A stretch of 64,000 nucleotides of DNA. It comes from Candidatus Faecousia intestinigallinarum (GTDB lineage: Bacteria > Bacillota > Clostridia > Oscillospirales > Oscillospiraceae). Position numbers and translations under genes: made by a program. Shown here piece by piece: positions 32,685 to 35,099 of the stretch. The DNA is taken from positions 1 through 64,000 of the forward strand of contig DVKX01000030.1 of assembly GCA_018715805.1 (NCBI GenBank), in the 5' to 3' direction. Numbering within the stretch: position 1 is the stretch's first letter; each line of letters starts with the position of its first letter. The notes under the pieces are model-generated. The model worked only from the letters and a program-made list of their open reading frames with translations. It ran no database searches and was not told the origin of the DNA.

Positions 32685-32713
32685 TGTACATCCGGGACAA
32701 ACTATGCTATAAT
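32685..32713 (+). promoter_or_regulatory. Promoter of the SCP2-like/aminotransferase operon
   Basis: TGTACA (32685-32690), 17-bp spacer, perfect TATAAT (32708-32713). AAGGGAG lies 8 bases before the first ATG. Confidence 0.65.
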
Positions 32714-32744: not shown

Positions 32745-33509
32745 ATGAAAGATGCCAAGGCTATGGCCTATGTGAATATGTACGGTGTGCTGGGCACGTT
32801 GGAAAACCTGTGCGCCATGGATGCGGACGCCCAAGACGTCCTGGAGCATCTGAAAAAACCGGTGAGCTTGTGTTTCCATGTAAAGGACGGCCCCTGCTGC
32901 ACTTTCCACTTTACGAAAAGCGGCTGCCGCATGACCGAGGGGGAGCAGGGCTGCACCTGTAAAATGACCTTTTCCAGCCCGGAGAAATTTAACGCTCTGA
33001 TCGACAACAGTAAGCCCGGCCTGCCCACCAAGCACCCCGCCCAGGTGCTTTCTTTCCTGCTGGGGCCTTTCACCGCCCTGACCAACCGTCTGACGGAGCT
33101 TCTGCGCCCCGGAGAGGAGCAGCTCCGCGACCCGGCGTTCTTTGAGGAGAGCACCCTGCTCACCATGTATACCATTGCGGGCGCCATCTCCGCCCTGGCC
33201 AACCACGACCCTATTTCTCGGATCTCCGCCGGAAACACCGTGGACGGGCAGGTGCAGCTGGGCATCGCCGGGAAGCTGGCAGTTACCATCTGCGTAAAGG
33301 ATCACCGCTTCACCACAGTGAAGGCTCCCTGTGACAGCCCCCGAGCCATCATGGAATTTGCCTCCGTACAGCTGGCGCACGACCTTTTTGCCGGGCAGGC
33401 TTCCACCATCAATGAACTGTGCAAGGGCGCCATCCGGCTGCGGGGCATGATCTCCATGGTGGACAACATCAACCGGATTCTCGACCGGGTGGCCGTGTAC
33501 CTGGGATAA
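32745..33509 (+). CDS. Unknown protein, possibly SCP2-like lipid-binding fold
   Basis: 254 residues, soluble. The segment around residues 40-100 (VSLCFHVKDGPCCTFHF, then CTCKMTFSSPEKFNALI) has the alternating strand pattern and the closing 's-pe-f-li' turn of SCP2 sterol-carrier domains, but similarity is by eye only. The second half is helical, with a repeat-like strand pair (QVQLGIAGKLAVTICVKD). Several Cys lie in the first half. It is first in a three-gene operon with a class III aminotransferase (12 bases downstream) and a FakA-like mini domain. I cannot assign a reaction. Confidence 0.6.
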   Translation: MKDAKAMAYVNMYGVLGTLENLCAMDADAQDVLEHLKKPVSLCFHVKDGPCCTFHFTKSGCRMTEGEQGCTCKMTFSSPEKFNALIDNSKPGLPTKHPAQVLSFLLGPFTALTNRLTELLRPGEEQLRDPAFFEESTLLTMYTIAGAISALANHDPISRISAGNTVDGQVQLGIAGKLAVTICVKDHRFTTVKAPCDSPRAIMEFASVQLAHDLFAGQASTINELCKGAIRLRGMISMVDNINRILDRVAVYLG

Positions 33510-33521
33510 GGAGGAAGAAAA

Positions 33522-34796
33522 ATGAGCAAATATCCTGAATACGATCACAGCAAAAGCCGGGCTTGGTTCGACCGGGCGCTGAACGTGATTCCCTCCGGCA
33601 TTTACGGCCACTTAGGCCCCTCCGAGGGGCTGTTCCTGCCTTTGGAGAAATGGCCGCTGATCTCCTCCAAAGCAAAGGGAACTTATTTCTGGGACATGGA
33701 CGGCAACCGCTACCTGGACTTCATGTGTGCCTACGGCCCCAATGTGCTGGGCTATGGCGACGCGGATGTGGACAGAGCCGCCATGGAGCAGCTGATGGCG
33801 GGCAACTGCACCACCGCCCCCTCCTATAAAATGGTGGAGTGCGCCGAGCTGCTCACCGATACCGTGGCCTGCGCCGACTGGGCGTTTTTCATGAAAAACG
33901 GAACGGACGCCACCACCTTCGGCGTCCTCACCGCCCGCGCCGCCACCGGGAAGAAAAAGACTATCTTTCTGAAAGGCTACTACCATGGCAACCAGCCCTG
34001 GGCAATGAAAGCGGACTACCCCGGTATTCTGCCGGAGGAAGTTGCCAACAATATCATCGTCCCCTGGTTTGATCTGGACGCGCTGGAACAGGCTTATCTG
34101 GAAAACGGCGGCGACATCGCCGCTCTGATCGCCCAGCCCTACGACCACGGCAATTTCGCAGACAACCGCTGTGCCACTAAAGAATACTGGGCGGCCGTGC
34201 GGAAATTCTGCACCAAGCACGGCATCGTGCTCATCATCGACGATGTGCGCGCCGGTTTCCGGCTGGATCTGGCAGGATCCGACCACTACTATGGCTTTGA
34301 GGCAGATATTATCTGCTTCTGCAAGGCGCTGGCCAACGGCTACAATATGTCCGCCGCCTGCGGAAAGGAGTTTCTCCGTCCCGCCGCCTCCAGTTTGAGC
34401 TACACCGGCTCGTACTGGATGAGCGCCGAGCCTTTCGCCGCCTGCATTGCCTGCCTGAATAAGATGAAAGCGCTGGATACGCCCGCTTTGTTCCGCCGGC
34501 TGGGCGAGCAGCTCACCGCCGGCCTCCGGGACGCCGGAAAAACCCATGGCTTTGATCTGGTAGTCTCCGGCGAACCGGCACTGTTCTATTTGCGCATCGC
34601 CAACGATGACAGCCTGATGCTCCACCAGGAGTGGGTGGCCGCCTGCGTCAGCCGGGGGCTGTTCCTTACCAGCCATCACAACCATTTCCTAAACGCCGCC
34701 GTCACCCAGGAGGACATTGCCCTCGCCGTGGACATCGCAGACGACGCTTTCTCCGTGGTGGCACAAGCGCATCCCGAATTGGACTTTACCGTATAA
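33522..34796 (+). CDS. Class III aminotransferase (glutamate-1-semialdehyde mutase-like)
   Basis: 424 residues, PLP enzyme of fold type I. The N-terminal GTYFWDMDGNRYLDF and FMKNGTDATTFGVLTARAATG are typical of the HemL/class III group. IDDVRAGFRLD holds the Asp contacting the PLP nitrogen, and FCKALANGYNMSAACG contains the Schiff-base Lys. HemL itself is unlikely because no haem genes are nearby and the DEVxTGFR block is changed to DDVRAGFR. The substrate is unknown. AAGGAGGAAGAAAA precedes the ATG. Middle gene of the 32.7-35.1 kb operon. Confidence 0.85.
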   Translation: MSKYPEYDHSKSRAWFDRALNVIPSGIYGHLGPSEGLFLPLEKWPLISSKAKGTYFWDMDGNRYLDFMCAYGPNVLGYGDADVDRAAMEQLMAGNCTTAPSYKMVECAELLTDTVACADWAFFMKNGTDATTFGVLTARAATGKKKTIFLKGYYHGNQPWAMKADYPGILPEEVANNIIVPWFDLDALEQAYLENGGDIAALIAQPYDHGNFADNRCATKEYWAAVRKFCTKHGIVLIIDDVRAGFRLDLAGSDHYYGFEADIICFCKALANGYNMSAACGKEFLRPAASSLSYTGSYWMSAEPFAACIACLNKMKALDTPALFRRLGEQLTAGLRDAGKTHGFDLVVSGEPALFYLRIANDDSLMLHQEWVAACVSRGLFLTSHHNHFLNAAVTQEDIALAVDIADDAFSVVAQAHPELDFTV

Positions 34797-34807
34797 GGAG
34801 GCGCGCC

Positions 34808-35059
34808 ATGACGGAATTTCGCTATGATACGCAGCTGCTTATTGAGGGCGAGGGATTGGACGAGGACGCCATCCACGACTACTTCTGCGCCCATTTTCAG
34901 GGTGACTGTCTGCTGGCCGTAGGGGATGAAAACCTTATCAAAATCCATTTTCACACCAATACTCCGTGGGAAGTTTTGGAATACTGCGCCAGTCTGGGGG
35001 AAATCTTCGACATTGTGGTAGAGGATATGTTCCGCCAGTCCAGAGGGCTGCAGGGATAA
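34808..35059 (+). CDS. Standalone domain related to the C-terminus of FakA/YloV
   Basis: 83 residues. The order GEGLDEDAIHDYF, GDCLLAVGDENLIKIHFHT, PWEVLEYCASLGEIFDI and VEDMFRQ closely follows the C-terminal domain of fatty-acid kinase FakA/YloV and related DAK-phosphatase proteins (GDSLVVVGD..KVHVHT..PG.VL). Here it occurs alone, without the kinase domain. In FakA this part contacts the fatty-acid carrier FakB. AAGGAGGCGCGCC precedes the ATG. Last gene of the operon before a terminator. A regulatory or carrier-binding role is plausible but unproven. Confidence 0.72.
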   Translation: MTEFRYDTQLLIEGEGLDEDAIHDYFCAHFQGDCLLAVGDENLIKIHFHTNTPWEVLEYCASLGEIFDIVVEDMFRQSRGLQG

Positions 35060-35071
35060 GCTCCATAGATC

Positions 35072-35099
35072 GCCGCCCCGCAGCGCGGGGCGGCTTTTT
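35072..35099 (+). terminator. Terminator of the three-gene operon
   Basis: A 10-bp stem (GCCGCCCCGC/GCGGGGCGGC) with a 3-base loop, followed by TTTTT. Confidence 0.92.

What the first reader, a model, noticed from the sequence alone, without database searches (positions are those of the whole stretch)
32745..35059. Uncharacterised operon: SCP2-like protein, class III aminotransferase, and an isolated FakA-type C-terminal domain
Promoter, three tightly spaced genes and terminator define one unit. A possible lipid-binding protein and a domain that in FakA contacts fatty-acid carriers flank a PLP aminotransferase that is not a typical HemL. This hints at amination of a carrier-bound or lipid-like substrate, a pathway I cannot match to a known one.
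Basis: inference. Interest (0 to 1): 0.6.

Follow-up and report, generated by a model that had tools for sequence, protein, structure and literature searches.

The report
Lipid-carrier and aminotransferase operon in Clostridia
Some uncultured gut bacteria carry a two-gene unit, a lipid-binding-type protein plus an aminotransferase, which in relatives is joined to an altered transketolase; together they look like an undescribed route for breaking down or building sphingosine-like amino lipids.

Summary
The three ORFs, promoter and terminator are real. The conserved unit is orf1-orf2; orf3 is an incidental neighbour. orf1 is predicted with high confidence (pLDDT 90.6) to be a tandem SCP2-fold protein. 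orf2 is a class III aminotransferase that groups with FumI, the enzyme that removes the C2 amine of hydrolysed fumonisin (a sphingoid analogue), and not with HemL. orf1 and orf2 are adjacent in every orf1 locus read, co-occur exactly in two genome samples, and their divergences correlate at r=0.98. orf3 is a free-standing FakA middle (zinc/dimerisation) domain, not the C-terminal domain, and 24 of the 26 genomes with full-length copies lack orf1.

New here: in 22 loci the pair heads a five-gene operon with a split transketolase and a second SCP2-like protein. All 27 such transketolases have Asp469 (E. coli numbering) replaced by Ala, and those in aminotransferase-bearing genomes also lack Arg358; housekeeping transketolases of the same genomes keep both. 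In E. coli these sites are engineered to accept non-polar aldehydes. Best reading: aminotransferase plus transketolase interconvert a lipid 2-amino-1,3-diol (sphingoid-like), its 1,3-dihydroxy-2-ketone and a fatty aldehyde. Fold, linkage and substitutions are shown; substrate and direction are inferred. The window's genome lacks the special transketolase.

The parts
32685..32713 (+). Promoter-like site TGTACA-17-TATAAT with TG before the -10, just after the terminator of the upstream gene
   Evidence: 10 of 12 matches; a -10-like box also lies upstream of orf1 in L008, L009, L010 and L085
32745..33509 (+). orf1: 254-aa tandem SCP2-like protein (N-terminal half about aa 1-120, C-terminal half about aa 121-254); no Pfam, NCBIfam or PHROGs hit of its own
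   Evidence: no hit; members L034 and L088 hit SCP2 just under the cut-off (E 7e-4 and 8e-4); model pLDDT 90.6; Foldseek top hits all SCP2 or SCP2-containing alkylsulfatases; VIA-align Z up to 11.9
33522..34796 (+). orf2: 424-aa class III PLP aminotransferase of the FumI-like clade; PLP lysine by alignment K268 (codon 34323-34325)
   Evidence: PF00202 E 8e-37; best solved structure FumI 6hbs E 1.7e-83, next HemL E 7.5e-42; tree and motifs
34808..35059 (+). orf3: 83-aa free-standing FakA-like middle domain; co-transcribed here, incidental to the conserved unit
   Evidence: PF21645 E 4e-18; dispersed elsewhere; zinc-ligand Cys replaced by Asp, HxH kept
35072..35099 (+). Rho-independent terminator
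   Evidence: 10 G-C pairs, loop 3, T5

Best explanation
The core is a two-gene lipid-amine module. The SCP2-like protein (orf1) holds a hydrophobic substrate for the FumI-like aminotransferase (orf2). orf2 interconverts the amine of a lipid vicinal amino alcohol, most likely a 2-amino-1,3-diol of the sphingoid-base type, and the matching 1,3-dihydroxy-2-ketone, using an oxo acid such as pyruvate. In many relatives the ketone is the substrate of the co-encoded split transketolase, which moves its two-carbon ketol unit to a sugar phosphate and frees a fatty aldehyde (or runs in reverse); a second SCP2-like protein accompanies it and, in some genomes, a class 3 aldehyde dehydrogenase oxidises the aldehyde. 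This would be sphingoid-base catabolism without S1P lyase, or synthesis without serine palmitoyltransferase if reversed. Shown: fold, families, operon and genome linkage, active-site substitutions. Inferred: substrate, direction, lipid hand-over. The window's genome appears to hold only the orf1-orf2 step.
For: orf1 tandem SCP2 fold. orf2: phmmer 284 bits to FumI against 147 to the best HemL; the 14 module aminotransferases form one clade (100/100) joined to the FumI group (89/81), with HemL outside, and share its motifs CAYGPN, KNGxDAT, DDVRAGFR, TGSxW and HNxF. FumI moves the C2 amine of hydrolysed fumonisin to pyruvate (PMC2933618); fumonisins are sphinganine analogues (PMC7711896). orf1-orf2 adjacent in all loci read, 3-23 nt apart in 31 of 32, distance r=0.98; exact co-occurrence among 99 relatives and in the 393-genome class sample, where the aminotransferase is found in exactly the four genomes that hold orf1 proper. 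Five-gene operon orf1-AT-TKN-TKC-SCP2' in 22 loci; the fifth protein is also SCP2-like. Transketolase D469A in 27 of 27, R358 lost in the 23 from aminotransferase-bearing genomes, catalytic His kept; seven housekeeping transketolases of orf1-bearing genomes keep R358 and D469. E. coli transketolase changed at these sites takes non-polar or aromatic aldehydes (PMC5073344, PMC7661550). G140 bears the pair on one contig and TKN-TKC-SCP2'-ALDH on another; the ALDH is class 3, matching human fatty aldehyde dehydrogenase at E 5e-122. Coupled transketolase and transaminase is an engineered route to amino-alcohols such as 2-amino-1,3,4-butanetriol (PMC5813273).
Against: The window's genome (98.8% complete) has neither a D469A transketolase nor this ALDH, so the full pathway cannot be claimed there. 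About 37-40% identical FumI-like aminotransferases sit in plasmid clusters that look like small-amine or polyol catabolism (dimethylformamidase, dimethylamine monooxygenase, four-carbon-acid kinase plus class II aldolase), so the family does not fix the substrate. An SCP2 fold is not proof of lipid binding. Known transketolases make 3S ketols (own knowledge), whereas natural sphinganine is 2S,3R. No transporter or lipase in the unit. No biochemical or expression data.
Confidence: 0.4

Rival explanations
1. The module handles another hydrophobic amine (aromatic, terpenoid or polyketide-like amino alcohol from diet or host) rather than a sphingoid base; same chemistry, different tail. SCP2-like proteins act as non-polar substrate holders.
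For: The same transketolase sites (R358, S385, D469, R520) are those mutated to take aromatic aldehydes; the linked ALDH also resembles benzaldehyde dehydrogenase MdlD (E 5e-137); SCP2 domains also occur in alkylsulfatases acting on detergents.
Against: FumI acts on a long-chain sphingoid analogue; class 3 ALDH and SCP2 both fit long chains equally well. Nothing specific points to an aromatic substrate.
Confidence: 0.25
2. Same enzymes run in the biosynthetic direction: transketolase adds a ketol unit to a fatty aldehyde and the aminotransferase aminates it, making a sphingoid-like membrane or signal lipid without serine palmitoyltransferase.
Against: ALDH linkage in G140 and in the f60 variant loci, and Zn-ADH/MerR linkage in the f58 and f60 variants, look catabolic; FumI is catabolic.
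Confidence: 0.15
3. The substrate is a polar amino-polyol or amino sugar derivative, and the SCP2-like proteins are structural subunits or chaperones with no lipid role.
For: Alphaproteobacterial FumI-like aminotransferases lie beside four-carbon-acid kinases and class II aldolases; L033, L036 and L038 carry an aldolase/second-aminotransferase cluster next to the module, in L033 with an FGGY kinase.
Against: Loss of Asp469 and Arg358, positions tied to polar or phosphorylated acceptors in E. coli transketolase, argues against a hydroxylated or phosphorylated acceptor; two SCP2-fold proteins per operon would be unexplained.
Confidence: 0.15
4. One reading: orf1, orf2 and orf3 form one three-part system in which a FakA-type domain contacts a fatty-acid carrier and orf2 aminates a carrier-bound substrate.
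For: Co-transcription in this genome and in G054/L008.
Against: orf3 is the FakA middle domain (zinc, dimerisation), not the carrier-contacting part; 24 of 26 genomes with a full-length copy have no orf1; G012 and G035 have orf1-orf2 without it.
Confidence: 0.03

Closest known systems
FumI, aminopentol (hydrolysed fumonisin B1) aminotransferase of Sphingopyxis sp. MTA144 (PDB 6hbs)
   Same: Closest solved structure; shares the active-site motifs DDVRAGFR, KNGxDAT, CAYGPN, TGSxW and HNxF; sister group in the tree
   Different: Under 40% identical; FumI works on a 1-deoxy sphingoid analogue in a soil isolate; the loci read here carry SCP2-like partners and, often, a transketolase
SCP2 / UbiJ lipid-carrier proteins
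   Same: Same predicted fold, Z about 9-12 over about 110 residues
   Different: Here two SCP2-like halves in one 254-aa chain; sequence below Pfam's cut-off; locked to an aminotransferase gene
Split-gene transketolase of Carboxydothermus hydrogenoformans (6yaj/6yak)
   Same: Same two-subunit architecture, the best hit for both subunits
   Different: The module's transketolases carry D469A, and R358A/S/T in aminotransferase-bearing genomes; the C. hydrogenoformans enzyme keeps Arg and Asp at those positions in the alignment
Engineered transketolase-transaminase cascades for amino-alcohols (PMC5813273)
   Same: Same order of chemistry: aldehyde plus ketol, then amination to an amino alcohol
   Different: Man-made, short polar substrates, no lipid carrier
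FakA fatty acid kinase, middle domain (for orf3)
   Same: Pfam FakA-like_M, HxH zinc ligands kept
   Different: Free-standing 83-aa protein, zinc-ligand Cys replaced by Asp, no kinase or C-terminal domain

Membership tests
SCP2 fold / SCP-2 superfamily (orf1) | SCP2 alpha/beta fold | tested here: met
   pLDDT 90.6; Foldseek E 1e-4; Z up to 11.9, rmsd 2.5 over 104 residues
SCP2 fold / SCP-2 superfamily (orf1) | Sequence above Pfam PF02036 gathering score | tested here: not met
   No hit for the window protein; best family members reach 20.3 bits against 21.3
SCP2 fold / SCP-2 superfamily (orf1) | Lipid binding | not testable with these tools
   Needs purified protein
FumI-like class III aminotransferases (orf2) | Phylogenetic grouping with FumI, apart from HemL | tested here: met
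   module clade 100/100, joined with the FumI clade 89/81 (short of the starred level); HemL outside
FumI-like class III aminotransferases (orf2) | C2 deamination of a sphingoid-like substrate with pyruvate | not testable with these tools
   Biochemical assay needed
HemL (glutamate-1-semialdehyde aminomutase) | Score above the NCBIfam hemL cut-off | tested here: not met
   172 bits against a cut-off of 527
FakA (orf3) | Kinase (N), middle and C-terminal domains in one chain | tested here: not met
   83 aa, middle domain only
FakA (orf3) | Cys/His/His zinc site of the middle domain | tested here: not met
   HxH kept, Cys replaced by Asp in all ten copies aligned; metal binding itself not tested
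Transketolase (module partner in relatives) | ThDP/catalytic His 26, 66, 100, 261 (E. coli numbering) | tested here: met
   All full-length rows
Transketolase (module partner in relatives) | Sugar-phosphate acceptor residues R358 and D469 | tested here: not met
   D469A in 27 of 27; R358 A/S/T in the 23 from aminotransferase-bearing genomes and kept in the 4 ADH-linked ones

The most novel reading that the evidence does not exclude
A natural transketolase-transaminase pathway for sphingoid-type amino lipids in anaerobic gut Clostridia: breakdown without S1P lyase or synthesis without serine palmitoyltransferase, served by tandem SCP2 carriers.
Probability: 0.3. Interest if true: 0.9.

Novelty: new variant of a known kind. 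Interest (0 to 1): 0.6.

Why it matters
Gut Clostridia meet large amounts of host and bacterial sphingolipids, and the two textbook enzymes for sphingoid bases are serine palmitoyltransferase (making) and S1P lyase (breaking). A transketolase that cuts a ketone made by a FumI-like aminotransferase would be a third chemistry, would return the head-group carbons to the pentose phosphate pool, and would be testable at once with two or three purified enzymes. It would also supply natural transketolases already altered at the site that engineers mutate to take non-polar aldehydes.

Tried and rejected
(1) Three-gene unit: rejected, orf3 is scattered. (2) orf3 as carrier-contacting domain: rejected, it is the middle domain. 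(3) orf2 as HemL: rejected. (4) Published description of an SCP2/aminotransferase/transketolase unit or of transketolase-based sphingoid metabolism: none found in the library searches; the library lacks most subscription journals. (5) Sequence search of the orf1 profile against PDB: no hit; only the fold comparison worked. (6) A special transketolase or linked ALDH elsewhere in the window genome: not found. (7) From memory, the Sphingopyxis fum cluster holds a ThDP (acetolactate-synthase-like) enzyme and aldehyde dehydrogenase after FumI, the same logic as here; I could not confirm it in the held papers, so it is not used as evidence. (8) A homologue of the fifth-gene SCP2-like protein in the window genome: none found.

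Full report
OBSERVATION. The window holds three consecutive same-strand genes at the stated coordinates: orf1 32745-33509, orf2 33522-34796 and orf3 34808-35059, with 12 and 11 nt between them, a TGTACA-17-TATAAT promoter match at 32685-32713 and a strong intrinsic terminator at 35072-35094. The scan alone does not lift the promoter above chance (3 found, 2.2 expected), but a TATAAT-like or TATACT-like -10 lies at a similar distance upstream of orf1 in four relatives (L008, L009, L010, L085). The genus is probably Candidatus Faecousia (order Oscillospirales): a same-genus genome carries a 7803-base contig that appears to be the Faecousia faecigallinarum contig of the same length (inference).

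ORF1. The window protein hits no Pfam, NCBIfam or PHROGs family. Two relatives touch SCP2 (PF02036) just under the cut-off, L034 with its C-terminal half and L088 with its N-terminal half. An AlphaFold2 model from 31 homologues has mean pLDDT 90.6 and two successive helix plus beta-sheet units. Foldseek's best matches are SCP2 proteins, UbiJ and the SCP2 domains of alkylsulfatases (E 1e-4), and VIA-align gives Z up to 11.9 (rmsd 2.5 over 104 residues), mostly for the C-terminal half; some alignments span both halves, as a swapped arrangement would.

ORF2. A class III aminotransferase (PF00202) far below the hemL cut-off (172 against 527 bits). Its best solved structure is FumI, E 1.7e-83, well ahead of any HemL. 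In a maximum-likelihood tree, 14 aminotransferases of this module form one clade (100/100) that joins FumI and alphaproteobacterial and betaproteobacterial relatives (89/81); E. coli HemL lies outside. Motifs shared with FumI but not with HemL include CAYGPN, KNGxDAT, DDVRAGFR, TGSxW and HNxF. FumI moves the C2 amine of hydrolysed fumonisin B1 to pyruvate (PMC2933618); fumonisins are sphinganine analogues (PMC7711896). FumI-like aminotransferases on plasmids also lie beside dimethylformamidase, dimethylamine monooxygenase and sugar-acid kinase/aldolase genes, so the family by itself does not prove a lipid substrate.

ORF3. Pfam FakA-like_M, E 4e-18: the middle domain, which in S. aureus FakA binds zinc through Cys240, His282 and His284 and holds the dimer (PMC11617999). 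It is not the C-terminal domain. In orf3 and its relatives the Cys is Asp and the HxH is kept. Full-length free-standing copies, 70% or more identical, occur in 26 of 149 order genomes, at unrelated places such as between pyrF and pyrE or near ribosomal genes; 24 of those genomes lack orf1. It follows orf2 here and in G054/L008, but not in G012 or G035. It is therefore an incidental passenger, and an unexplained conserved small protein in its own right.

THE REAL UNIT. orf1 and orf2 are adjacent and in the same order in every orf1 locus read, with 3-23 nt between them in 31 of 32 (the exception reflects the start codon chosen). Their pairwise distances correlate at r=0.98 over 528 pairs; shared ancestry adds to this figure. 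Among 99 relatives both occur in the same five genomes including this one. In a class-wide sample of 393 genomes the aminotransferase occurs in exactly the four that hold orf1 proper. The family is rare and patchy.

THE LARGER MODULE. In 22 loci, from the CAG:217-like clade plus L036, L038 and G349 (L103), the order is orf1, aminotransferase, transketolase N, transketolase C, second SCP2-like protein. The fifth protein matches the orf1 profile (E about 1e-9) and its model (pLDDT 85) also matches SCP2 proteins. In G140 the orf1-AT pair lies on one contig and TKN-TKC-SCP2'-aldehyde dehydrogenase on another. That dehydrogenase is class 3, the family of human fatty aldehyde dehydrogenase (E 5e-122); it also resembles benzaldehyde dehydrogenase. 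Four further genomes (L104-L107) carry TKN-TKC-SCP2'-Zn-ADH-MerR, the two f60 ones with ALDH as well, without the aminotransferase.

THE TRANSKETOLASE IS ALTERED. All 27 distinct transketolase C subunits of these clusters have Ala at E. coli position 469. The 23 from aminotransferase-bearing genomes also have Ala, Ser or Thr at 358, while the four ADH-linked ones keep Arg. Catalytic His 26, 66, 100 and 261, and His 461 and Arg 520, are kept. Seven housekeeping transketolases from orf1-bearing genomes, including the window's own, keep Arg358 and Asp469. E. coli transketolase changed at R358, S385, D469 and R520 takes aromatic aldehydes (PMC7661550), and the S385Y/D469T/R520Q lineage was walked from phosphorylated to non-polar aliphatic and aromatic acceptors (PMC5073344). 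So the natural enzyme appears adapted to a non-polar aldehyde.

MECHANISM (inferred). Amine: R-CHOH-CH(NH2)-CH2OH plus oxo acid gives R-CHOH-CO-CH2OH plus amino acid (aminotransferase). Transketolase then moves HOCH2-CO- to an aldose phosphate and releases R-CHO; the aldehyde dehydrogenase, where present, oxidises it. SCP2-like proteins would carry the hydrophobic species. In the ADH variants the ketone would come from an alcohol instead of an amine. The long-chain version of this amine is a sphingoid base. Coupled transketolase and transaminase steps are already used by engineers to make amino-alcohols such as 2-amino-1,3,4-butanetriol (PMC5813273).

LIMITS. The window's own genome (98.8% complete) has the pair but no altered transketolase and no such ALDH, so at most the amine/ketone step can be claimed there. 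Substrate, direction and lipid binding are not shown. Transketolase normally gives 3S ketols, whereas sphinganine is 3R (own knowledge). The literature library lacks most subscription journals, so novelty is provisional.

Noticed in passing
window 34808-35059; L060-L081, L089: A free-standing 83-aa FakA middle domain, 70-88% identical across many families of the order, at unrelated loci, with the zinc-ligand Cys changed to Asp: an unexplained, strongly conserved small protein.
   Followed up: partly
L104, L105, L106, L107: Variant cluster without the aminotransferase: split transketolase (D469A, R358 kept), SCP2-like protein, Zn-alcohol dehydrogenase and MerR regulator, in L105 and L107 also a class 3-like ALDH.
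   Followed up: partly
L033 1-4748 (minus strand), L036 98-2847, L038: Divergent neighbour of the module: a 497-504 aa HemL-like second aminotransferase with a 408-aa class II aldolase, and in L033 also a TetR regulator and an FGGY kinase.
   Followed up: partly
L114, L115 (Agrobacterium, Shinella plasmids): FumI-like aminotransferases next to acetoin-dehydrogenase-like ThDP subunits: again an aminotransferase paired with a ThDP enzyme.
   Followed up: no
L103 2841-5634: In G349 the five-gene operon is followed by a glyoxalase-like protein, a BaiCD/bilirubin-reductase-like flavin oxidoreductase and a TetR regulator.
   Followed up: no
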